NCBI GenBank assembly: GCA_963693285.1
Contig: OY848917.1
Span: 2,296,501 to 2,360,500 of the forward strand
DNA from: Xestospongia muta
Lineage: Eukaryota; Porifera; Demospongiae; Haplosclerida; Petrosiidae
Reading direction: 5' to 3'
DNA length: 64,000 nt
Part shown: piece by piece, positions 2,300 through 41,846 of the stretch
Layout: each line of letters opens with the position of its first letter
Position numbering within the stretch: position 1 is the first letter of the stretch
The notes under the pieces: model-generated
The model's input: only the letters and a program-made list of their open reading frames with translations
Told to the model about the DNA's origin: nothing
Databases searched by the model: none
Made by a program: the position numbers and the translations under genes

Positions 2300-3129
2300 A
2301 TATGGTACATGTTTTAGCTGGGATTTAATTTTTGCAAAAAAGGATATATATTAACTAAATCATGACAGTTATTTTGCATAATTTAATATGGCAGACAGAC
2401 TGTGATAATTACAAATTAAGTTTTCAATAAAGACAACAAAACGTTTATTATTATCTATTATTTTTTATTTATAAAAGTTAAACAGAAATTATGATAGGGT
2501 CAAGTTGCATTGTAGTCTTTCCAGCCATACCATAATCCGTTCACAAGTATAGCAGACAAATCACAAGGAGGGTTGTAATAATCATATCGCGATTGCACTA
2601 TTGCTCTAAAATAATTTCTTGTTACATTACCAACATTATACAAGAGAACAGGAAAAGGAATTAATTCCATCAGTACATCATTAGCCAATTTTTAATTTAA
2701 AAAATGCATATACAAACGGATATGAAGCAAGTAAGGGCCTTTGTGGTTGTTTGTAGTTTGTGGTAGTGAACTGTTTTGCCTACATCTCCTCCTTTTAACC
2801 TCAAATTGTCTATAAGTACAATTATAGAAGTAGGTGCTTAATTTGACAAAAGACTGTTGTTGACATAGCCTAATTGTAGGCGGATTAGTCGTTTTAACAC
2901 AGCTGTATTAAAAGTAACATTGTCTTGTGTTAGTGAAACATGATTTTTGCTGCTGTTGGAGTCACAAGTCTAATTGTTGTGAACATCACTTTAGTCTGAC
3001 TAGGCAAAGGCATAGGTGTAGTAATGGCATCATTATTTACTTAAGTTGACACATGATTTATATGGTGTACATCATGATGAACTAATTCTCATTAGTAATC
3101 ATTTTATATAGCAAACAAAAATTGATAAT
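2300..3129. other. Intergenic, no gene seen
   Basis: AT-rich sequence with an AATAAA signal at 2426 and no convincing exon. A 62-codon minus-strand open frame at 2500-2688 shows no recognisable motif and is treated as chance. Confidence 0.6.
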
Positions 3130-5285
3130 AATTGTATGTAATGCAAAACATTAAAAAAAATCTTTCCAAAGTAATGCCTTCTTCTCTCGTTTTAATCATA
3201 ATTGTCTTCGCAATTTCATTTTTATTTATTTCATTTATCTTGTCCTTGTGTATATAAAGAATCATGCAATGATTGAACCACAGCTGAGTCATGGTGGTTT
3301 GCAAGCAAGTTTTCAAGTGCCTTAGAACAGAGAAAGAGCGTTCTGTAGTAGATGTAGTTACTGGAATGACGAAGAAGATTGTTAGCAGGTTAATCACCTC
3401 GGAGAACATTTCTTTACTCGTGGAAACTTCATTCATTACATCACATAAAGTTCTATCATTAGTCACCTGAACAATGGGAGGGGCCCCAATTACTTTACCA
3501 TTTCTTGTGTGGATAAGATAAGGCAGCATTTGAATTTTTAACCTCATTATGTTTGTATTAGCCATGAAGATCACCAGAAATTTACAGTTAGCTGCATCCA
3601 AGAGTGTCTTTTCTATTACTGCTATCAAATATATGGAAATAGCTATAAAAGCAAATAAAAGTAACTCTATAAATCTGATTGATGGCAAGCCTCACTTTTG
3701 TCAAAAGCGCTTTTTTTAATCCAGTTTATTAATTAAGAGATCAAGGTCAAATATTGTATAGTTGTCTCAGCAGCCATTGTTGCTTCTTGAACAGTGGTAT
3801 CTTTATCCTGTAATGTCAAAGAGAGCTGCTCTGTACCAGAGAAATTTAGATGGGATAACTTCAATTCAAAGATAGTTTTAAATTTATCCATCATTGCTAG
3901 CAATCCCCCAGCTTTTCTACCATAGTCATCATGAGTTTTTACATTGATCTGCTCCAAAGCAACACCAAGAACACTGTATTTACTAAGAACAGCATCAAAG
4001 GCAGCTGTTTGTACAATCCATCGTGTGGGACAGAGTGGTTTTTAAACTTGTTTTGGCTTGAATTACATACCTGAGTTTGTAGAGTTTCAAAGAGGGATGT
4101 TTGTTGGGTGAGTAATGAATCAGCTGTGAAACTTCCATTATAAAATCTAAAACATCTCTGACAGAGGAACACTGTTGGCCAACTGATTGTAAATACAAAT
4201 TTGTGCAATGTGCAAAGCAGTGTACAAATAGTGCTGTGGGAACATCTTTTTTTTATCTGAGCTTCTACCCCATTTAGCTAACTAACCACTCATGTTTGAA
4301 GTCCCATCATACGCCTGACCATGACACTGGGAAAGGGAAAATTGAATTAAGCAATCTATTATGGCTTTCACTATTGTTTCAGAGTTTGTCTTGGGAAGCT
4401 GTATCAGTTCAACAGCGTCTTCATGGATAGTAAATGTATTGTTATCTACCCATCGAATGCAAATGACCAATTGCTCTTGATTACTCACATCCTTTGCCTC
4501 GTCTACAATAAGGGAAAAACATCTTGCCTTTATGATATCAGTCAAAGCATTCTTTATGCATGCAATCCTAAACGATCAACCTGCTCATTTAAAATTGAAG
4601 GAGAAAAATACTTCCTCTATTCAATCCACCTTTTTAAGTCAAGAAAATCTGAGTTTCAAAAGTTGCAGCGAATTTCCTTCTAATTCTTGATGCCCTCTTA
4701 TTGCTAAGCCCTGTCGTAAGTAGGAATTGGAGTAATGAAATTTGCCTCAGAACCATTTCACGATGTGATTGTTGATCACTAGCCAAATTTTCTGGATCAA
4801 AGTGGAAACATTGTCCTGTTGATTCATTAGCTCTATTTTTAATACAACTTGCTTGTGTAGATGTGATAAGCTATGTTAATGGAGTTTTTCACAAGCTCTT
4901 TTTTTCAATTGTCAAAGCCATTGGTTATAAAAGTTTCCTTTCCTTTCTTTGACATTTCTAACAATATATTATTGCTACAATAACGGCAATAACAACAGAA
5001 TGCTTTCTTCTTTGTTATGCACAATGACATGGAAAGGCTTTATTCCAGGTAGAAGAAAAGTTTCGATACTTATTGCCCTGTTTTCTTCTAAGCTTTGACA
5101 ATATGTTAGGGTCAGGAGTCAAACCCCCCAAGCAACATTCTGATGTACAACATGAAAGATCATGTTGAACTTAATCATTAGTAGGGTTGTTGTTATGTAC
5201 AATTCTGAGGATTAGATGTATTGTCAGATGTCTGACCTTTATTAGAACATGCTGAATTATCAGTAGCCTGAGACATTGAAAATTA
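3130..5285 (-). pseudogene. Decayed hAT transposase (TTF/ZMYM1-like type)
   Basis: Broken minus-strand pieces keep the order of a TTF-zinc-finger hAT transposase. From the 5' side: an acidic, polar N-terminus starting at an ATG near 5267; a Cys-rich patch near 4960-5010; the catalytic-Asp region FSLIVDEAKDVSNQEQL (4282-4545); the downstream motif GQAYDGTSNMSG; a middle segment with HDDYGRKAGGLLA (3733-3957); and the C-terminal dimerisation region with TSTTERSFSVLRHLKT (3104-3688). Several frameshifts and stops separate these pieces, so no full product is possible. This is an old DNA-transposon remnant. Terminal inverted repeats were not found by eye. The family assignment rests on the motif order and is fairly secure. 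Confidence 0.85.
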
Positions 5286-25269: not shown

Positions 25270-26215
25270 ATTGTTTGAATTTATCCCTCCAAGCCAACAC
25301 AATTTTTTTTCATCCCTCCAGGCCCTTGTCTCTCTTATTCAATTTGAATGTTTTTGCTCTAACCACACTAGGTAGCTGGCGCCAAATTTTATTCAGTGTC
25401 CCAGTAAATCCAGTTTCCCTCCTCTTCAATTCTTCCACCAAAGGAACACTAGAATGAAGCCAATCAGCATAGATGTGATGACCCTTGTCAAGATAATTCT
25501 CAGCAAGGGCAACAACAATCTGGGTGAGCATAGGGACTTCAGGATCGACCGATGACAAATATATGGCTCGTGTCTCACGTCCAGTATAAGGGATAATGTT
25601 TAAAACATACCCCGTTCTATTGTTGCAGAGCACAAATGCCTTCAGTCCGAACTTTGTCGGTTTCAGTGGACAGTACTGTTTGAAGGACACCCTACCCTTG
25701 AAACCAATCATACTTTCGTCCACTGAAATGTCACACCCAGGGTAGAAAACACTCTGGAAAGTGGCAAGTAGCAAATTGAGGAGAGGCTCTATTTTGTCAA
25801 ATCTATGTGTCCGATTTTCAGGTTCGGGGAGGTGGAACATCCAGTAGATTTCCTCAAATCGATTTCTAGGAAAGACGTTATGGAAAAAGGATATGTAACA
25901 TTCCCATGACATCTTCCAGTATGACTCAATATCAGGACAGTTATGGACACCATATTGATGACGACAGCCTGTGTTCCTTTCATCTCCTCCATAGTGACAG
26001 CCCTCCACTTCTCATCAATCATCTTCTCTGCAAACTTGTTCGTTCCATCAATGTGGAGATGAGTTGGATGTCTAGGTCGTCCTTGGCCCTGGCTGTTGGA
26101 TGAATGGTGTTGACGGTGGTGGTGTATCCAATGCAATATCATGTATGGGTGTCCAGTTGTTGTCGATATTGTTGTTGTCTTTGGCTTCACCTCCCTTTCC
26201 ACAACCACCACGACC
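25270..26215 (-). pseudogene. Decayed piggyBac transposase, copy 2
   Basis: A 232-codon minus frame (25310-26008) has FPRNRFEEIYWMFHLPEP, ISVDESMIGFKGRVSFKQY with the first catalytic Asp, and HHIYADWLHSS with the second. An overlapping frame (25789-26211) supplies the preceding part, with TNKFAEKMIDEKWRAVTMEE. A frameshift joins them, and the sequence is lost soon after WRDK near 25285, so the third Asp and C-terminus are missing. It is better preserved in its middle part than the copy at 16.7-17.8 kb and belongs to the same family. Confidence 0.88.
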
Positions 26216-27498
26216 TTTTTCCACGTCCTGTATTATATATTAGTCATAAGCATTAGTCATATGTATTCTTTATTCTTTACTCTTTACTTGGTATCAATTG
26301 ACATTAGAAAAATCCGTGTACCTGCATTGTTGTTCATTAGTCACTTGTGATATTTTTCAATCAGTGTTTTTTCATTAATATCTTTACATTTTGACCCCAA
26401 TAGCTATTGACATGGTCACATAAATAGTTAATTGTACTGTTTCTCTCAGTTTCTGTCACTTGAAACCGACTATCAAAGTTGTTGTAGAACTTTAATGAAC
26501 TATCCTTGAAAGCGAAAAGAATCAATATTAGCAGTATACATTTTCCTTTTCCTTTTTTGCTTTTTTGGAAAACACTGTACTCTTTTGTGATGACTGGGCT
26601 ATATTATATACTGTTGGTATCATAGTTTCCTTACTTTTTCAATTTGTGTTTTCTGTTGTGGATAAAGAGATATTCTATAATGCTACATTGTTCTTTGATT
26701 CTTGAAAAATTGAAACATTAATAAAAGAATGACTTGATATTTCTATTTCTGCTTGGAGTGTGTTAATACATTCTCTTTGATGTTATCATAAATAAGTTGT
26801 AGTCCTTTCAGATGCTTAGTTATATAAAGTGAAATAATAAAGTGAAGTAGTTTTTTAACAAGCTTTTATATTAAATTAATGAAAAAGTTGCTAAACACAA
26901 ATTCACTCATGGTTGTTTTCTTCATTGTATAGTGCTATTGGCAATTGTATAATACAATTCCATTACTACTGACTTTGTGTGTAGTAGGTTTTGTGTTAAC
27001 ATTTAATGAATGCATCTTGAATGTTTTGCTTTAAAGCATCGCTTTTTAAAATGGATTCCTAACCATAATTAGTACCTGTTGATTAATCCAGACTAGTTGG
27101 CAAATAGCAGTTACTCACATATAGGTTTAGTATGCTTGCTTGAACTTTTTCGTTAGTAAATACATTTTTCAGATGGTTTCTCAAAGAGTGGTTGAGGATG
27201 AAGGAGGAGTATGTATAGTTTGACTCAATGCCTAAAATTCCTGTTTTAGACAAATGAGCTTTGACTACCTCGAAAGAGAAAACCATCAAATACAATTGTA
27301 TTAATTAACAATTTTCTTCAGCTTCTCTTCATATTTCTTTGCAACATTATTCTGTCCAACAGGTATGATTTTAAAAACTATTTCTGCCACATTTATATGC
27401 ATCCAGTTAACAAAAACTTTCATTTTTACAACCTTATTGTGTTAACATAAATTGATAATATTGTATTGATAAATATTCTCATCAGCTGCTGTTCATAT
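26216..27498. other. Intergenic with diverged repeat copies
   Basis: AT-rich DNA. GAATGCATCTTGAATGTTTTG near 27005 matches 23585, and the following stretch to about 27290 is a diverged family A copy. No gene was recognised. Confidence 0.5.
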
Positions 27499-27816
27499 TA
27501 TGGCTGGGACGAAGGTGCATTTCCTTCCTTCGAAGGCTCGTTGCAAGAACATTCGAATACTTAGCCACTGTGTTCTCTCAAATTGCTTGTTCCTTTATGA
27601 AACAAACTTTACACTTCATTTTCTTTGATCATCTATCTTCTCAAAATGTTTCCAGACATCTGATTGAGGTGCACAGGCAGCCACGACAATAACTATGACT
27701 AAATGAAGCATGCGCTCTAGTAGTAGGCGTAACTAGTTAATTAATTGCAATAAAGGGTGTGTCATAAATGTTTGAATGCCAGAAATTGAACATTTGAACC
27801 TTTTTTTCCAGCCCTA
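27499..27816. mobile_element. Non-autonomous hAT MITE, 318 bp, with TSD
   Basis: The element starts TATGGCTGGGACGAAGG and ends with the reverse of TAGGGCTGGAAAAAAAGG, so the inverted termini share a TAGGGCTGG-type end common among hAT elements. It is flanked by an exact 8-bp duplication, GTTCATAT, at 27491-27498 and 27817-27824. The host sequence is a family B module, whose uninterrupted copies show one GTTCATAT at this point. No open frame encodes a transposase. Confidence 0.85.
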
Positions 27817-27884
27817 GTTCATATTTCGTTGCAATATTATTCTGTCCAACTTGTACAACTTATATACTCTGACTATTTATATAT

Positions 27885-28085
27885 ACATTGTTGATCATAG
27901 GTATTGCTCTGTTGATTAATTCAGACTACTTCTCAAACAATGGTTATGGATGAAGGAATGTTATGACTCTATGCTTCAAAGTTTTTTTTTTAAACTTAAT
28001 AGCTAGATATATGCAGTCTTTGTCTCAAGAGATGTTTAACAAACAAAACAAAATCCTTCCATGCTTGCTTGCAATTGATATATCT
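27885..28085 (+). repeat. Dispersed repeat family A, copy 5
   Basis: Close match to 20915-21125, including AACTTAATAGCTAGATATAT, AAGAGATGTTTAACAAAC and CATGCTTGCTTGCAATTGA. The retained similarity suggests a young pair or a duplicated block. Confidence 0.7.
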
Positions 28086-28258
28086 GCCCATAACACAACT
28101 ATTGAGACCTGAGTGTGTAACAGAGGCTGGTCGCCTCCACCTGGTATATGGCCAGTAACGCAACACACACATGAATACTAATGAGGTCATTACAAGTGCT
28201 TAGGTAAATTAATGGTTGAAATATTCATATTAAAATTTTTTCACCAAACAAAAAGATA

Positions 28259-28318
28259 AATATTAAGATCAAACGTTTCAATAGTGATACGACTATCTTC
28301 ATCAGTGTCTTAAATATT
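28259..28318 (-). ncRNA. Candidate type I hammerhead ribozyme
   Basis: The minus strand carries both hammerhead core boxes, CTGATGA (28299-28305) and GAAAC (28275-28279). Stem II is ATAGT/ACTAT around the loop CGTATC. Helix III would be the palindrome ACGT, as in minimal hammerheads thought to work as dimers. Helix I pairs AATATTTAAGACA with TGATCTTAATATT over about 12 bp with one bulge per strand. The predicted cut lies between 28272 and 28271. Hammerheads of this kind are known in the terminal repeats of Penelope-like retroelements. The adjoining 28320-28440 may be a remnant of such an element, but no reverse transcriptase is present. Confidence 0.65.
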
Positions 28319-31300
28319 GAGAATAAAAGTGCAAAATCAGTCCTATTTATACTAAGCTGAAGGACGAAGTTACGCATCTGTTGCGTGGGTGGGTTCCTGT
28401 GCGTGAGGGTTAGTCTGGAGCAGTGTTGCCAGATGTTGTGATCAAAATTATGCTAGACAGTCATTCAAAAAAATGCTAAATACCCCACCCAGTATGCTAG
28501 AATGAATATGGATACGTTTTCTTAACTACTTCATAAGCATTTACCTAAAAATTTTGATACAAGTGGCACCTTATACATAGATAGTTCTTATTATATAGAC
28601 ACTCCATTGATTTACTGTTGTCAGCTTGATTTGTTGATTATTTCTTTGTTGTTAATTAAGTGAGCAGATTATTTCTTTGTTGTTGAGTGAGCAGTACACA
28701 AGTTATTTGTTCCACTCAATATATGAAGAACACTTCAATATTGAAGTTGTCTTGTCGACACTTTCGATGAAGTTTGTCCTTAATCAATTGCCGTATTTTG
28801 GAATACATGAGAATTTATGATAAATCTTTGCAATATTCTATACAGAATGTGCGAAGTAAGCAAATTGAAGGCATTCTTGTCAGCTGCTATTCATATTTCG
28901 TTGCAATTTTATTCTGTCCAACATGTATGATTTTAAACTTTCTGCCACATTTTTACGTCCATTCAAAGCTTATTGTGTCTACAAATAGCTCTTCTTACAT
29001 AAAATTGTATTGATAAATAATTCTCATCAGCTGCTGTTCATATTTCGTTGCAACATTATTCTGTCCAATATATACAATTCTTAAAACGTTTTGTGTATGC
29101 TAATGTACAAAGCATTTTCTGTTACAAATCAAAATATTGTAAGCAGAAGCAGCACCATCAAAATCAGACCCTGTACCTTAAAACACAACAGCAAGGAATT
29201 AATAATGAAAAGACGTGTTATACTCATAACTGTATGGTATAACAGTATTATAGTTAATAACAATATCTTTCAAAGGGCTGTGAACTGGTGGTAAAATGGA
29301 AACTAAAAAAGCTTTGATTACTCCCCAAGTACATATACAGGAGAGGAAGAGGTTGATTAGTTCTGAAGAGTTTACACCAATGTCACCATTCCAAACATGT
29401 ACATACAAATTAGTTTCTCTTCACAGATGTATACTGAGCTTACAGAAGTGCAGTTTGTTATCTGTACTTTGTAATTGCACAGATGAACTTCTAATTATAG
29501 CTGCGCTAATTGGATGTAAATATTAGATCTAACTGGTATTAACTTTTTGTTTGCTGGTGTTCTTGTGATCCTGACCGCTTGTGAGGGAGCGTATTAACTT
29601 CTTGTAATAGATTTAATAATAAGACACCATAATTTAATATGTTATCTGTCTTATTTCTAAGTTGGTAATGAGTATGTGATAATTATTGCTTTGAGAGATG
29701 GGACAGCACTAGGCGATAAGAAATGTTTGTTAATATAAAGATATTAAGCTTTACAATGTGTGGTTTTATTTATATCTACATCAATAATAGCGTAATGCGT
29801 GTATAATAATGTTAGTAATGTTAATATAATGATAGTTAATTTTGATAGTGTTACACTCAGTATATTATGTTCATTATTATTTATTTTTCTTGTACAGATA
29901 ACTCTTCACAAGGTCAAATCATACTGCATCAGACTTTTTTCAGAAACTGATATCATGGAACATAACGACCAAATATGTCATTTTGAAATAAAATATACAA
30001 ACAGTAGCCCAGGTAAAATGTTTCATGCAAACTATGTGACTTTACATGTAGATATCTCAGGGATGATGACTCTATTGAAGAGGCTGAACCCCCCCCCCTC
30101 CCCAATAAGAGGGCAACAGTAATCAGTTGCTGAATTGATATAATGTCAGTACACATTGGTAAGCTATATTTGTTGATGAGATGTACATGATACTGATATG
30201 TACATGATACTGATTCATAGTGAAAATGCATGTAGAATGTAATATTCATGAGATATTCTAAATATGTATTATGTGTAGTCTACTAAAGTCACAAGACGTC
30301 TTTTCTTACATACATGAAGTGAGTAGGTTGTCTTGCCATGACACCATTAAAATTATAGGCAGAAACCACGCATTAGTCCAATTCCTTGATTTTGACTCAC
30401 CAATTGGAATGCCTGAAATCTGTGACAAGTATTATTCATAAATCATGATAGAAATTTGTCAAAACTTTTGTAGCTATCGTCAGTATAAAAACTGATTTTA
30501 TGCATTATTAGGTTATTAAACAAGATAGGGCCTACTTTACAAAGTTTTTCATCAACAACTGTCACATCTTGATCAAGATAACAAATCAGATATTATGCAC
30601 CATTTGTTAACTTGCTTCCATTCAATTATCTCTTCCCTGCAGAATTGACTAAACTTAAAGAGAGGGGTTAAAGGAAGGGGATGTATCATCAGACTTAGCA
30701 GATCAAATGAGTACATTTATTCCATTATGTTTTGATAGACATATCTATGATAATTTTCATGATTTCTGGTGAGATGTCAAGATGTTTTGTATAGCATACA
30801 AGGTATTGAGTCATTATATCAACAACAATGAAATGAAGAATTACTCTTTCCAAAGGATTTCAAGGAAAAATCACCAAAGATTTCCTTTCCAACGTTTCCC
30901 AAGAAAGTCAAATATTTGACCGAAAAGCAGCATTCCATGAAAAGTTTATTGCGGAGTTTTAAATGATCTACACTCATCAAAAGGCAACTGGCCAACTGTC
31001 TTGTCCCATCTCTGTTGAGTCATCACATGCCATATTAGACATAGCAAGCAAATAAGCTATAACGAAAGACTAGAGGGAAGAATAATTGTAGTCTTTACCC
31101 TCTACGAACATCTATAAACCTTAGTATAAGTAGTTTTTAAGTTAGTGGTGTAGTGACGTTAATATTTATAGGTTTTTACTTGTTATGACACTGACACTGA
31201 CATGTAACATCTTTATTCTTTCATATTCGAGAAAAATTTTAAAGTCCATAATATAATATGAATACACTATGAATTATGAATATTATTAAGAGTAAATTAT

Positions 31301-31438
31301 TTGGCTTCTGACTTCCTGCTAAACATAGTTTTGAGGAATTGGTTAAGTATAATAAATTCATATATGTTCCAGGTTGGGGGGCAGTTAACATTGCACGTAA
31401 ACAGCATGTGACTAGTATGAATATATGTTACATTACAG
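28319..31438. other. Intergenic, no gene recognised
   Basis: AT-rich DNA with several 60-107 codon frames (for example 29799-30122 and 29296-29526, plus) lacking recognisable motifs. It holds two family B modules (28882, 29030) and a run of C at 30090-30099. The part just before 31439 probably contains the promoter or a 5' untranslated intron of the next gene, since a splice acceptor (CATTACAG) lies at 31431-31438. Confidence 0.5.
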
Positions 31439-31468
31439 CTATCACACTAGAACAGATATTGCTCTAAA

Positions 31469-34400
31469 ATGGACTCTAAATTAGGTCAGTTTTGAATGTA
31501 AAGCATTACAGATTTATTTTAAGTTTGTAGATGACAGTTACATTATGGAAAGCGCACCTCGAGGTCGCTGCATTATCATCAACAATGTCGTTTTTCATGA
31601 CAATGTCATGATGCCAGCTCGAATTGGTAGTACTCTAGATGCTGTAAGCCTTAGTGATTTATTTGAAGAATTCCTTACGTTTACAGTCGAGCTAAAGAGA
31701 GATGTCACAAAAAAAGAACTTGATGGACTTGTGTTCGATCTACAAAGTGAAGATTACTCACAAGATAGTGCCTTTGCTTTCATTATACTCAGTTATGGAG
31801 ATGAAGATGGTTCGTTCTATTGCACAGACGGAGCAAAAATTTGTGTTACTGATATCTTTGAATCTTTTATTGCAAGCAAATGCCCATCTTTGACAAACAA
31901 GCCAAAGTTATTTTTAGTTCTAACACATGCACTTTTACGAGAGTTAGTGGATAAAAGCAAGGATATCAACGATGATGGCTGTTGTGATACTTATATGGAG
32001 GCTACAGTATCACCTGATGTTGAAGACAGCCTTTATATGCTAGGAATTACTAGCAACTATTCAGCAACAAGCTTAAGTTTGAAAAGCTCGTATATCAGCC
32101 AACTTGTTTGTGCAGTGAGAGGATATGCGTATACTAAAGATATTACAACTGTTCTCAAAAACGTAACTGACCAGATCACAAAGCAGGAAGACCACGATAA
32201 AACTAGATTAAAAGTTGTTTCAAAATTGCAAAAGAATTTATTTTTCTTCCCGGAAAGCAGCGAGCATACCAGGTAAGGTACTGATATAATAGACTGTAAT
32301 TACGATTGTCATTTCCGCATTGCAAGGGGAGCACACAACCAGCCCCTCCTTTAGAGGTGGGGCCGGATATACGCGCTAAATTTGGGGGTAAACAGATCTG
32401 CTTGTCTGTTTATTTGTAATTGCATTATAATATTGGAAAAGAAATCCTACAAAATATATAAACCTTATAGAAATGCCTTCAAGCTAAAATTCTCAATTTG
32501 CGTTTACCAGTCTTTATTAGAGTTACAGCAATTCTAATTGTCAGCATATTTATGGAAATAAATTTGAAGAGTTGGTCCACATACTTGTATCTAAGCATGA
32601 ACTGAGCAATATATCATTCAGTACATTTATTAAAACTATAGTGGATACCTTTGCAAAAGTATTAATAGTTTACTGTGTTTGAATATGCTAAATTACCTCT
32701 TTTAAACCTTACATATTAAATAATAACATTAGACTTCTGTTTTGCTATGCACAGTGACTGTTCAACACCTTAACAATAAATTTGAAGTCATTGTAGTTTA
32801 ACAAACTTATTATTAATGATAACAAAATAAAGGTTTAATGAGCTACGATTAATATAAAAAAAATAGAAGAGGATTTCCAGATTGTAAAATTTTTAGAAAA
32901 TTATTTTTTTAATAAGGATAAGTTAAGTTATTGTATATATCAACATGATTCGTTTTGGTGGAAATTGATGCTAAAATCAGTTTTATTTTACAGGTTATCA
33001 AAACACAGCAGTATTGACAAAATGGGACCTTGTTCTCAAAAGGGACTAGTATATACCCATTCAGCATCTCGTCACAGCTTACCCTTTTCTGAAGAAAAAC
33101 TGTCTAAGCTACCTTCAAAGTGTTTGAGCATGATTGAACTAGGAGAAAGTCCACATATGGCTGTCAAAAGAGAGATGTCACTAAATGTTGGATCAGCTAG
33201 TTCTCACCAGCTGCAACAGTTTAGATATAAGTTTACAAAAGGCATTTCAGAGCCTCATGGAACATCATTCAATATGATAAGTAATATAGATGAAGGAAGT
33301 AGTATTCCAGAAGAAACAAATGGAAACAGTGACTTGCCGTTAGCTACGATGAAGCAAGAAATATCCCTTGGTGACATCACCATTAGTTCACAATCTAAAA
33401 GGAATGTTATATCATCAAGTCTATCGGATCTTGATCAAGGTGTGCTGAACCTAATGTATTCTCTTAACTACTATTACAATATATGAGTGTTGTAGTTTCA
33501 AGTAAATCATTGAAATTTACCTCCTATATAAAGCTATTATATCCTCAAAACATGCTAACACAGGTATTTTGATAATTCATGAGTTTGATATGCTAGATTG
33601 CTAAGGTGTAGCTGTTTCTGCAGTAGTGCTGGCTGTTTGAGCAGTAACAATGCAGTGCCAGTCTAAGAATTAAATTCACTTCATATTATGCTATTCCTTT
33701 TCAATAAGCAATTACTTTAAGTTATGACTTATACAAATTAAGGGATTTTATTTGGATATGAGTAATACATAACTATACTTCACATTAGTAGCAGTATATA
33801 ATGAACATTTGGAGACAGTCACTGGTTATGATAGAAAGTTGATAGCTTCAATTAAAACTCAGTTGTCAAACTAAATTTTTTTTTCATATAGAACCAACTA
33901 TTCCCTATCACATGCATAGTGGCCATAGATTCCATGGCTACTGTATTATTATTAACAATAACATTTCCGATGAAATAATGCAGTTTGATGAAATCCGATC
34001 TGTGCTAAGCAAAGAAATGGGATTTCATGTGGAAGTGTATACCAAAATCACACGCAAAGGTATTCACCAGTTATTGAGTTCTCTGTCTTCTGTTGACCAT
34101 GCTGACTTGGATTGTTTAATTATCTCTATATTTAGTGAAGGAAAGAAAGAGCAATGCATATATGGAGCAGATGGCAAAAAACTACAGGTGAAGGAATTAA
34201 TAGCTCACTTCTCTCGTGACTCTTGTAAAACTCTTAGCAATAAACCAAAAATCTTTCTGTTTGAAACACAAGTTAAGGAAAGAGATCTTCTTCAGGCTTC
34301 TATTGAGGACATAGAAATGAGGGATGTGTATATTCAATCAGCCATTTTTACTGAAGAAGAAATACAGACCACTTTTTTGCATGAGTTTGTGCAGACAATA

Positions 34401-35608
34401 CATACGATTGATGATTGTTTTGTCTTTACTGACATTGTTGAGATGACAAGGAATATATTACATCAGAGCAATGACACAGTATTTTTTATGCATGTTGATA
34501 ATCTCAGAAAGCCTTTACAGTTTTCGAAATGCATCTTACAAAATTTTACGTAAGTGTTGTGTTTAAAAGTGAGGTTTGTGTTTAGCGTAATAATTTTGTT
34601 TAAAGTTAACAATATAAGCAATCTCTTTTGATAATATACATTTCGTAATTCATTAAAAATTTTAATTATTGATTATTAAGATGTATTTTCAATTAACCAT
34701 AATGTAGTATCACTTTGTAACTTTTAATCCTTTATATTCACAGCCAAGAATGTCATCAAATTGGACAAAACCTAATAATGGCACTCCAGGTGTGGCTACC
34801 CATGAGAAAAAGTACCATTGCTGTTATTGAGAAGAAACGTGACAAGATAATACAAGTTTGTCGAGATGCTAGGAGATCTAGAGTAGCTGGAGCTGTTACA
34901 TCAATAGTTGGGGGAGGACTAGCTATTGTTGGTGTTGGACTTATACCTGTTACATTTGGTGCATCACTAATTGTCTCCGGTGTAGGAGCAGCTGTAGGAG
35001 TAGCTGGTGGAGTAACTTCAGTTGGAGCAACGCTGGCCAACACAATAATATCTAAAGCCAATCTGAAAGGTGCTCAAGCGATCATTCAAGTTGACCAACA
35101 ACTTTGTGAACAAGTTAACCAGTTAGAAGAGCAGCTAGAAAAAGCTGTGAAATCTCTTCATAAACAAAATCCTAATATGAGCAAAGACGAAATAGCTGTT
35201 GCTCTTATGCAAGGTGGGCAAGTGGTTCGTTTGGGAGTGATAGCTGCTAAGGGAGGAGTTGCTGGTGTGCAAGTTGCTCGAGTTGGTGGAACAGCTGCCA
35301 TTCAAGGAGGCATCTTGGCTGCAAAAGTTACAGGTGCTGCAGTGAGAGGGGTGTCTGTAGCAGGTGGTGTAGTATCTGTTCTAATCTTGCCCCTTGATAT
35401 TTATGAGCTTGCATCAAATGCTTATAGATTGCATAAAAAGTCAGAAAGCAATGCTGTTCAGTGGTTCAATGAACAAATTGAACAACTTGGAAGTCAACAC
35501 ACAGAAGTTAAATCTCTGCTTCAAGGATTACAAAATGACAATAGATCTAAGAATACAACCTCACAAGAATCCATAGAGTTATCTCAAAACATAGGCACAA
35601 CCCTTTAA
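31469..35608 (+). CDS. Tandem pseudo-caspase / apolipoprotein-L-like protein
   Basis: Five coding exons join in phase: 31469-31484, 31531-32272, 32994-33439, 33892-34549 and 34744-35608, all with GT-AG introns (46, 721, 452 and 194 nt). They give 908 residues. The start is chosen because caspase-like similarity (SYIM before GRCIIINN) begins upstream of the ATG at 31545, and an in-frame stop precedes 31469. Residues about 8-250 form a p20/p10 caspase fold in which SHG reads SYG (Tyr94) and the QACRG Cys is His138. Residues 253-401 are a Ser-rich linker. Residues 402-620 are a second, shorter caspase fold with Ile481 and Gln528 at the catalytic places. Residues about 633-890 resemble apolipoprotein L: a Gly-rich hydrophobic hairpin (668-720), a heptad-like segment (737-762) and a second hydrophobic stretch (782-842). 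Neither caspase unit should cleave substrates. The ApoL part suggests membrane insertion. Function is inferred, not known. Confidence 0.82.
31485..31530 (+). other. 46-nt intron at the start of the caspase-like gene
   Basis: GTCAGT donor and TTTGTAG acceptor. Splicing joins a split Asp codon (G plus AT) and brings DSYIM in front of the caspase-like domain, where caspases have similar residues. The same exact length is seen in the collagen gene intron. Confidence 0.6.
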
Positions 35609-40957: not shown

Positions 40958-41846
40958 ATGAAGGTAGCTCTGATTATTTTCATTGTCCTAGTTGCTGCTC
41001 AGTATCATGAAGTAGTAGCAGATAAAGGTAGGTTAGTATAATCAATTTTCATAGTTTTGTTACTCTTTATTAGTGAAGTCAACATCAACATCAACATCAC
41101 CACCAACATCAACATTACCTGATTCGCCTTTCATACGTAACAATACTTATATTAGAGTATTACGAGGTCGAGATGGAAGAGATGGGTTACCAGGACCTCC
41201 AGGACAACCTGGTTTGGATGGCAGAAATGGAAGAGATGGAAGAATGGGTCGTAAAGGAGATAGAGGAGAACAAGGAGAAAAAGGACCTCCTGGACCACGA
41301 AATGGAGGTTTGGTATATACTCATTGGGGAAAAGACAGTTGTCCAAATATTGAAACTGGTTGCGAGATACTCTATGCAGGAAGAGTTGTTGGTGAATATT
41401 CTAATAGGGTTGGAGGAGGAGCTAACTATCTATGTCTTCCTGAAGAAGATCCCGAATATCTCAGTGCTACTTATAACGGTGACCAGGCACGTCTAGTTGG
41501 AACAGAATACGAGAAACCAATTATAGAGTCTGTATCACAAGATTACAATGTTCCATGTGCAGTATGTTTTATGCCAGAAAAAATAGCTCAAGTTATGATA
41601 CCAGCTAAAACTAGCTGTCCACGATCATGGACTGTAGAATATACTGGATATCTAATGACTGAACACTATGGTAGCCAAAACAACAAAGAGTACATTTGCG
41701 TTGATAAAGATAGTGAACCTGTTCCTGGTAGTGCTGGTAATAATAATGGTGCATTACTCTATCATGTCACTGCTACATGTACTGGAATTCCTTGTCCACC
41801 ATATGATAATAAGAAATATATCGCCTGTGTTGTGTGTACCAAGTAA
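40958..41846 (+). CDS. Secreted short-chain collagen C4-like protein
   Basis: Two exons, 40958-41027 and 41074-41846, joined across a 46-nt GT-AG intron, give 280 residues. Exon 1 is a signal peptide (MKVALIIFIVLVAAQ and following). Next come a short Ser/Thr/Pro-rich stretch and about fifteen Gly-X-Y triplets (from GRDGRDGLPGPPGQPG to KGPPGPR). The C-terminal domain of about 175 residues has many Cys and starts GGLVYTHWGKDSC. This layout matches the sponge short-chain collagen C4 family, whose C-terminal domain has been related to the collagen IV NC1 domain. The product is probably secreted into the sponge matrix, forming a short triple-helical rod with globular heads. A TATA box and an AATAAA signal frame it. 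Relics of the same gene lie at 39.5 kb and in each array unit. Confidence 0.9.

What the first reader, a model, noticed from the sequence alone, without database searches (positions are those of the whole stretch)
31469..35608. Fusion of two dead caspase domains to an apolipoprotein-L-like domain
Five exons fit in phase into one 908-residue protein: caspase fold, Ser-rich linker, second caspase fold, ApoL-like membrane domain. Caspases act in cell death and ApoL proteins insert in membranes, so the fusion suggests a membrane-linked scaffold or decoy in cell death or immunity. I know of no described protein with this architecture.
Basis: partly seen in the sequence, partly recalled or inferred. 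Interest (0 to 1): 0.9.

Follow-up and report, generated by a model that had tools for sequence, protein, structure and literature searches.

The report
Dead caspase pair fused to ApoL
This animal gene joins two inactive caspase (cell-death protease) domains to a membrane-inserting apolipoprotein-L domain, and related genes in the same genome carry an intact-looking caspase or a protein kinase in the first position, which suggests a home-grown family of one-piece cell-death switches.

Summary
Observation confirmed. Five exons at 31469-35608 (+) join in phase into 908 residues with two caspase folds and ApoL. It is not a lone oddity: the same genome holds three unbroken five-exon paralogs with the same order and intron phases, plus a fourth with a frame break. 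In all four the first caspase keeps His and Cys; the window has lost both. The second caspase lacks both in 10 of 10 genes aligned; the window's keeps a full caspase fold. Three further genes put a protein kinase before the same pseudocaspase-ApoL cassette, through introns of the same phase. So the unit is a pseudocaspase-ApoL cassette with exchangeable catalytic front ends, and the window gene is the member whose front end died. Most likely, active members couple caspase activation to ApoL membrane insertion and the window member is a c-FLIP-like partner or brake. Anatomy is firm; function is inferred, without transcript or experiment. Three protein searches and eight paper searches showed no caspase+ApoL protein.

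The parts
31469..31484 (+). exon 1 (MDSKL..), short N-terminus, no sign of a prodomain; donor GT at 31485
   Evidence: homologous short first exon MDHxxx in three paralogs
31531..32272 (+). exon 2: first caspase domain, catalytically dead (Tyr94 for His, Cys place lost)
   Evidence: Pfam PF00656 residues 16-240; PDB alignment to caspase-3
31794..31796 (+). Tyr94 at the catalytic His position
31926..31928 (+). His138, at or beside the catalytic Cys position (QACRG box reads LTHALL)
32994..33439 (+). exon 3: Ser-rich linker, about 148 residues (about 43-47 residues in paralogs 155k, 490k, 500k); no Pfam family over cut-off
33892..34549 (+). exon 4: second caspase domain, pseudocaspase with full caspase fold, c-FLIP-L among the good matches
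34137..34139 (+). Glu484 at the catalytic His position of the second caspase
34269..34271 (+). Gln528 at the catalytic Cys position of the second caspase
34744..35608 (+). exon 5: ApoL domain and stop codon
   Evidence: Pfam PF05461 E 6.8e-12 for the frame; 26-63% identity to 16 other ApoL frames of the genome
34880..35029 (+). 50-residue hydrophobic stretch (residues 667-716) without acidic residues, place of the APOL membrane-insertion hairpin
   Evidence: domain meaning from PMC8358165 and PMC7891394 passages
35327..35416 (+). last strong hydrophobic stretch (residues 816-845), ending in PLDIYELAS, place of the APOL pore-lining region
35396..35398 (+). Asp839, invariant in the 17 ApoL frames of the genome aligned and in two fish ApoL segments

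Best explanation
SHOWN: the window gene is an intact five-exon gene for a dead-caspase / pseudocaspase / ApoL protein. It is one of a family in this genome built on a pseudocaspase-ApoL cassette that carries either a caspase (five genes, four with His and Cys in place, one of these four with a frame break) or a protein kinase (three genes seen) in front. INFERRED: in the active members the front caspase pairs with the c-FLIP-like pseudocaspase beside it, as caspase-8 pairs with c-FLIP-L. When upstream signals cluster and activate it, the attached ApoL domain is freed or rearranged so that its hydrophobic hairpin enters a membrane and conducts ions, which kills or empties the cell. The window member cannot cut anything. 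It keeps a caspase fold that could pair and the best conserved part, ApoL. It most likely works as a c-FLIP-like partner of the active paralogs: it joins their complexes, sets the threshold, and either blunts or adds ApoL to the assembly. My preference is for a modulator/brake over an independent killer.
For: Intact model and GT..AG borders. Three unbroken paralogs with the same five exons and phases, first caspase with LSHG and Q[SAT]CRG; that of 155k aligns on caspase-8 His and Cys. 13 of 26 ApoL matches in the genome have their own same-strand caspase match within 5 kb upstream (a 14th is a neighbour's); 0.04 expected for all 26 under uniform placement, 1 of 26 on the 3' side. Casp1 of five genes (507k as a piece) = one clade 100/99, ten casp2 = one clade 99/100. 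Window casp2: confident caspase fold, c-FLIP-L among the good matches. ApoL is the best kept part against the nearest paralog: 63% identity (casp2 39%, casp1 38%), NG86 dN 0.25, dS 0.99. Hydrophobic hairpin and Asp kept. Kinase-pseudocaspase-ApoL genes with phase-1 and phase-2 introns at the same two joints.
Against: No transcript, protein or assay. No D/ExxD site (followed by one of eight residues) was found in the three unbroken active paralogs, so release of ApoL by self-cleavage is not predicted by that simple motif. The window casp1 has diverged fast (end branch 1.16 against 0.28-0.36 for 507k and 155k; 36-38% identity to the four active ones, which are 53.5-57% alike if the near-identical 490k/500k pair is left out), which also fits loss of any role for that domain. 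The window casp2 model matches ordinary caspases as well as or better than c-FLIP-L. The ApoL model is poor (pLDDT 58) and gave no PDB match at E 0.001, so membrane insertion rests on Pfam, hydropathy and the conserved Asp.
Confidence: 0.5

Rival explanations
1. The window protein is itself a killer: another caspase or kinase cuts or modifies it (the long Ser-rich linker would be the target), which lets ApoL insert in a membrane. It would be a substrate, like gasdermin or MLKL, and not a brake.
For: ApoL is the best conserved exon against the nearest paralog; the linker exon is more than three times longer than in the 155k, 490k and 500k paralogs and Ser-rich; human APOL1, 3 and 6 are cytotoxic on overexpression (section heading seen in a passage of PMC8358165).
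Against: The three D/ExxD motifs of the window protein (starting at residues 143, 168, 225) lie in the first caspase fold, none in the linker or before ApoL.
Confidence: 0.25
2. A degenerating copy: the first caspase is rotting, and the gene has no function or only a remnant one.
For: Both catalytic residues and the Arg/GSW surroundings are lost in casp1; long end branch of casp1. One paralog (507k) has a broken frame in casp1, so decay does happen in this family.
Against: All 908 codons open, all splice borders GT..AG; in the three domains compared with 507k the third codon position differs most and the second least.
Confidence: 0.12
3. Two or three separate genes misread as one (one ending at the stop 33486 after exon 3, another starting in exon 4).
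For: Exon 3 stays open 47 bases beyond the proposed donor to a stop at 33486; no cDNA.
Against: Three unbroken paralogs have the same five exons in the same phases with linkers of different length; the pseudocaspase-ApoL joint has the same phase-2 intron also in the three kinase genes.
Confidence: 0.04
4. A role outside cell death, for example in membrane traffic or mitochondrial/ER lipid and calcium control, with the caspase folds as mere interaction modules.
For: Human APOL3 and APOL1 act on PI4KB and Golgi PI(4)P (PMC7891394 abstract and passages); a sponge paper lists apol3 among genes raised in reproductive females (one passage of PMC9012834).
Against: Active paralogs carry an intact-looking caspase site and the genome has a large caspase repertoire, 106 matches.
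Confidence: 0.15

Closest known systems
caspase-8 : c-FLIP-L heterodimer
   Different: Here both would sit in one chain, no DED prodomain is in the models, and an ApoL domain follows. In the window copy both folds are dead.
human APOL1-6
   Same: ApoL Pfam domain, hydrophobic hairpin, a conserved Asp in the last hydrophobic stretch (APOL features from PMC8358165 and PMC7891394 passages). The hairpin lacks acidic residues; the review ascribes pH dependence to acidic residues in the APOL1 hairpin, absent in APOL3.
   Different: I know of no human APOL with a caspase domain (recalled).
caspase-gasdermin and RIPK3-MLKL executioner pairs
   Same: A protease or a kinase controls a membrane-disrupting protein (recalled general knowledge).
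   Different: Here trigger and membrane domain would be one polypeptide, and the membrane domain is ApoL. PMC11508797 reports for Porifera only NLR and Caspase-1, not GSDM (passages); my own gasdermin search of this genome gave none but its control did not ring either.
decoy caspases such as C. elegans CSP-3 and mosquito CASPS18
   Same: Caspase-like proteins without catalysis that tune active paralogs (recalled; only listings seen).
   Different: Those have no ApoL or other membrane domain (recalled).
fish kinase-ApoL protein P0003 (Labeo rohita, named Nek1)
   Same: A kinase fused to ApoL, a parallel to the kinase branch here.
   Different: No caspase fold among its listed Pfam domains; two ApoL-like segments by alignment.

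Membership tests
active caspase (Peptidase C14) | caspase fold detectable by profile | tested here: met
   Pfam, both domains over cut-off; predicted fold of casp2
active caspase (Peptidase C14) | catalytic His and Cys present | tested here: not met
   window casp1 Tyr94 and LTHALL; casp2 Glu484, Gln528. Met by casp1 of 4 of 5 caspase-type genes, 507k seen as a piece
ApoL (PF05461) | profile match above curated cut-off | tested here: met
   42.5 bits in the whole protein, 45.9 in the frame of exon 5; cut-off 25.9
ApoL (PF05461) | hydrophobic hairpin and conserved Asp of the last hydrophobic stretch | tested here: met
   that this Asp equals APOL1 D348 is inferred, no human sequence was aligned
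ApoL (PF05461) | channel or membrane-lytic activity | not testable with these tools
   needs liposome, bilayer or cell assays
c-FLIP | dead caspase fold that pairs with an active caspase | tested here: inconclusive
   fold and missing residues shown; pairing not tested, and ordinary caspases match the model as well
c-FLIP | tandem DED prodomain | tested here: not met
   first exon codes 5 residues; no DED in Pfam for the 908-aa model; short first exon also in three paralogs. Frames further upstream were read by eye only
gasdermin-type executioner | gasdermin pore domain | tested here: not met
   no gasdermin family among Pfam matches up to E 10 for the protein

The most novel reading that the evidence does not exclude
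An early animal lineage built one-chain executioners: a caspase or a protein kinase fused through a c-FLIP-like pseudocaspase to an ApoL membrane pore, which do the work of caspase-gasdermin and RIPK-MLKL pairs, perhaps in a genome without gasdermins (none found, but that search had no working control). The window gene is a catalytically disarmed member kept as their in-family regulator.
Probability: 0.35. Interest if true: 0.9.

Novelty: new variant of a known kind. Interest (0 to 1): 0.75.

Why it matters
If the active members work as proposed, protease, pseudoprotease and pore sit in one polypeptide, and a kinase can take the place of the protease on the same output cassette. That would make it directly testable how lytic cell death was wired before or without gasdermin and MLKL, and would give APOL proteins an old role as death effectors under caspase control. 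The window gene offers the natural catalytic-dead comparison.

Tried and rejected
Relatives outside this genome: the full protein (2 proteins at E 0.001 among 7,995 scored candidates), the ApoL part of paralog 490k (1 protein at E 0.01 among 7,993) and the alignment A1 of three family members (23 proteins at E 0.001 among 5,718) gave caspases with DED, CARD, Death, GTPase or no other listed domain, one of them named CFLAR, and a fish kinase-ApoL. None of these 26 rows lists caspase and ApoL together. The search needs shared 5-letter words, and searches scored only the candidates sharing most words, so absence elsewhere is not shown.

ApoL structure: pLDDT 58; first Foldseek match the ClyA alpha-pore-forming toxin at E 0.33, then designed bundles and others; the profile search of solved structures gave two toxin-component chains (names as deposited: Nhe L1, MakE) at E 0.003-0.004 over about 88 positions, then ferroportins. 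Treated as uninformative, since low-confidence helical models and hydrophobic stretches match such chains by shape.

Gasdermin in this genome: 0 matches, but the control rang nowhere, so no claim of absence.

Upstream prodomain for the window gene: the + strand frames of 30 aa or more from 26000 to 31600 were read by eye and none looked like DED/CARD/Death; they were not scanned by profile. The short first exon shared with the paralogs argues that there is none.

Self-cleavage sites: D/ExxD search found none in 155k, 490k and 500k; single-Asp sites cannot be judged by eye.

Papers: (0 papers), 17, 26, 27, 64, 65, 72, 73 asked about ApoL with caspases, sponges or domains, about decoy caspases. 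Only the listed papers were seen (titles and abstract starts); for example 15 of 18,211 and 20 of 93. Passages read: PMC11508797, PMC8358165, PMC7891394, PMC9012834. None described a caspase-ApoL protein. The library holds only CC0/CC BY/CC BY-SA papers.

Tree: 18 of the 25 other caspase loci held (L030-L036 left out), of 106 matches in the genome; casp2 of 10 of the 13 caspase+ApoL loci (6.169 Mb, C8:5.774 Mb and C8:7.189 Mb left out; read by eye they too show no SHG/QACRG). The casp2 clade sits on a long branch and holds long end branches, so long-branch attraction is not excluded.

Not done: naming of the species; full-length fold of the fusion (spliced proteins do not fit the rule of the structure tool, so single exons were folded); upstream exons of the C8 copies at 5.76-5.775 Mb. 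The ApoL gene at C1:6.184 Mb showed no caspase match within 5 kb.

Full report
What is in the window. Five exons on the + strand (31469-31484, 31531-32272, 32994-33439, 33892-34549, 34744-35608) have GT..AG borders, join in phases 1,2,1,2 and code 908 residues. Open frames of this length are not expected by chance here: the longest frame in each of 20 simulated 64-kb sequences was 109-167 aa, against 214-295 aa for the four large frames.

It is a family. In the same 158-Mb, 28-contig genome there are 26 ApoL and 106 caspase matches (lower bounds by the tool's own note). Fourteen of 26 ApoL matches have a same-strand caspase match within 5 kb upstream; one of these is the neighbour's, so 13 count. 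0.04 would be expected for all 26 under uniform placement, and the 3' side gives 1 of 26. Four genes on contig 1 match the window layout. Those at 155, 490 and 500 kb give unbroken five-exon models of 794, 776 and 776 residues with the window's intron phases (490k and 500k use a GC donor at the second intron); their first exon is equally short. The one at 507 kb has one frame break in the first caspase and was left as it is. The first caspase of 155k, 490k and 500k has LSHG and QSCRG, QACRG or QTCRG, and the 507k piece LSHG and QACRG. The 155k domain aligns on caspase-8 with His and Cys in place.

Order of events. On a tree of 33 caspase domains of this genome the five first domains form a clade (100/99) and the ten second domains of ApoL genes form another (99/100). 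None of these ten second domains has the His or the Cys. So the pseudocaspase next to ApoL was most simply dead early, while the first caspase of the window died later; its end branch is 1.16 against 0.36 and 0.28 for 155k and 507k. Its exact place inside its clade is not resolved (52/4). The tree holds 18 other caspase domains of the genome, was rooted at the midpoint for drawing only, and the casp2 rows are long.

A second front end. At C5:283-287 kb, C5:251-253 kb and C8:5.781-5.785 Mb a protein kinase precedes the pseudocaspase. Pfam was run on two of the three kinase C-lobe frames and scores PF00069 at 5.8e-31 and 4.7e-33; of the third (C5:252k) only 143 residues lie in the stretch held and they were read by eye. 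A phase-1 intron can join kinase to pseudocaspase and a phase-2 intron pseudocaspase to ApoL, the same two phases as in the caspase genes. More than one donor fits at the first joint; a GTATAT donor is among them in all three. This looks like a cassette whose N-terminal module was exchanged. The kinase N-lobe exon of C5:283k alone gave no Pfam match, though it reads like one by eye.

ApoL part. It is the best kept part of the window gene against 507k: 63% identity, against 39% for casp2 and 38% for casp1, with NG86 dN 0.25 and dS 0.99; most other dS values are near or past saturation. It has a 50-residue hydrophobic stretch without acidic residues and a last strong one ending in PLDIYELAS. The Asp there is invariant in 17 of 17 ApoL frames of this genome that I aligned (33 matches, some of them pieces of one gene) and in two ApoL segments of a fish protein. 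In human APOL1 the first two membrane segments insert and the fourth lines the pore, with an Asp conserved in APOL1-6 (PMC8358165 passages); the hairpin is compared with colicins, diphtheria toxin and BCL2 proteins (PMC7891394 passages). Equating the Asp with APOL1 D348 is my inference. The AlphaFold model of this exon was poor (pLDDT 58) and does not decide anything.

Mechanism. Shown: anatomy, loss of catalytic residues, the paralogs, the shared cassette. Inferred: that active members pair caspase with pseudocaspase in one chain and thereby control ApoL insertion; that the window member modulates them. Against a plain gasdermin-type cut: no D/ExxD motif in the three unbroken active paralogs, and in the window protein only three, all in the first fold. 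I therefore leave open whether ApoL is cut free or moved.

Novelty. Three protein searches and eight paper searches showed no caspase-ApoL protein, within the limits told under Tried and rejected. One comparative study reports for Porifera NLR and Caspase-1 but no gasdermin (PMC11508797 passages); whether this genome is a sponge was not tested, and my gasdermin search had no working control. The parts are known families; the arrangement and its kinase variant are, as far as I could see, undescribed.

Noticed in passing
window 36892-63188 (-): Five very similar tandem open frames of 533-537 aa at 5-10 kb spacing (36892, 46522, 51561, 56567, 61587), hydrophobic like multi-pass membrane proteins; the one copy scanned had no Pfam match at E 0.1.
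   Followed up: partly
window 25310-26011 (-): Transposase frame, DDE_Tnp_1_7 E 3.5e-44.
   Followed up: no
window 3104-3691 (-): hAT-family dimerisation region, E 1.4e-05.
   Followed up: no
window 41055-41846 (+): Collagen-repeat open frame, E 2.5e-06.
   Followed up: no
G000:C5:283343-286988, C5:250940-253178, C8:5781280-5784557: Protein kinase - pseudocaspase - ApoL genes, a second branch of the same family.
   Followed up: yes
L069 and L044 (G000:C1:27038828-27046533): Two further caspase folds lie upstream of a pseudocaspase-ApoL pair; possibly three caspase folds and ApoL in one gene. The first of the two keeps FSH and a Cys in a changed box.
   Followed up: partly
G000:C6:0.80-0.98 Mb and C10:1.72-1.89 Mb: Large clusters of caspase-fold exons; four sampled frames (L025, L026, L028, L038) match neither of two narrow patterns for the His and Cys boxes.
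   Followed up: no
G000:C1:486.2-486.7 kb and 503.6-504.5 kb: A hydrophobic frame with MCNISR near its start follows two of the ApoL copies.
   Followed up: no
protein P0003 (Labeo rohita): A fish protein named Nek1 carries kinase and ApoL domains.
   Followed up: partly
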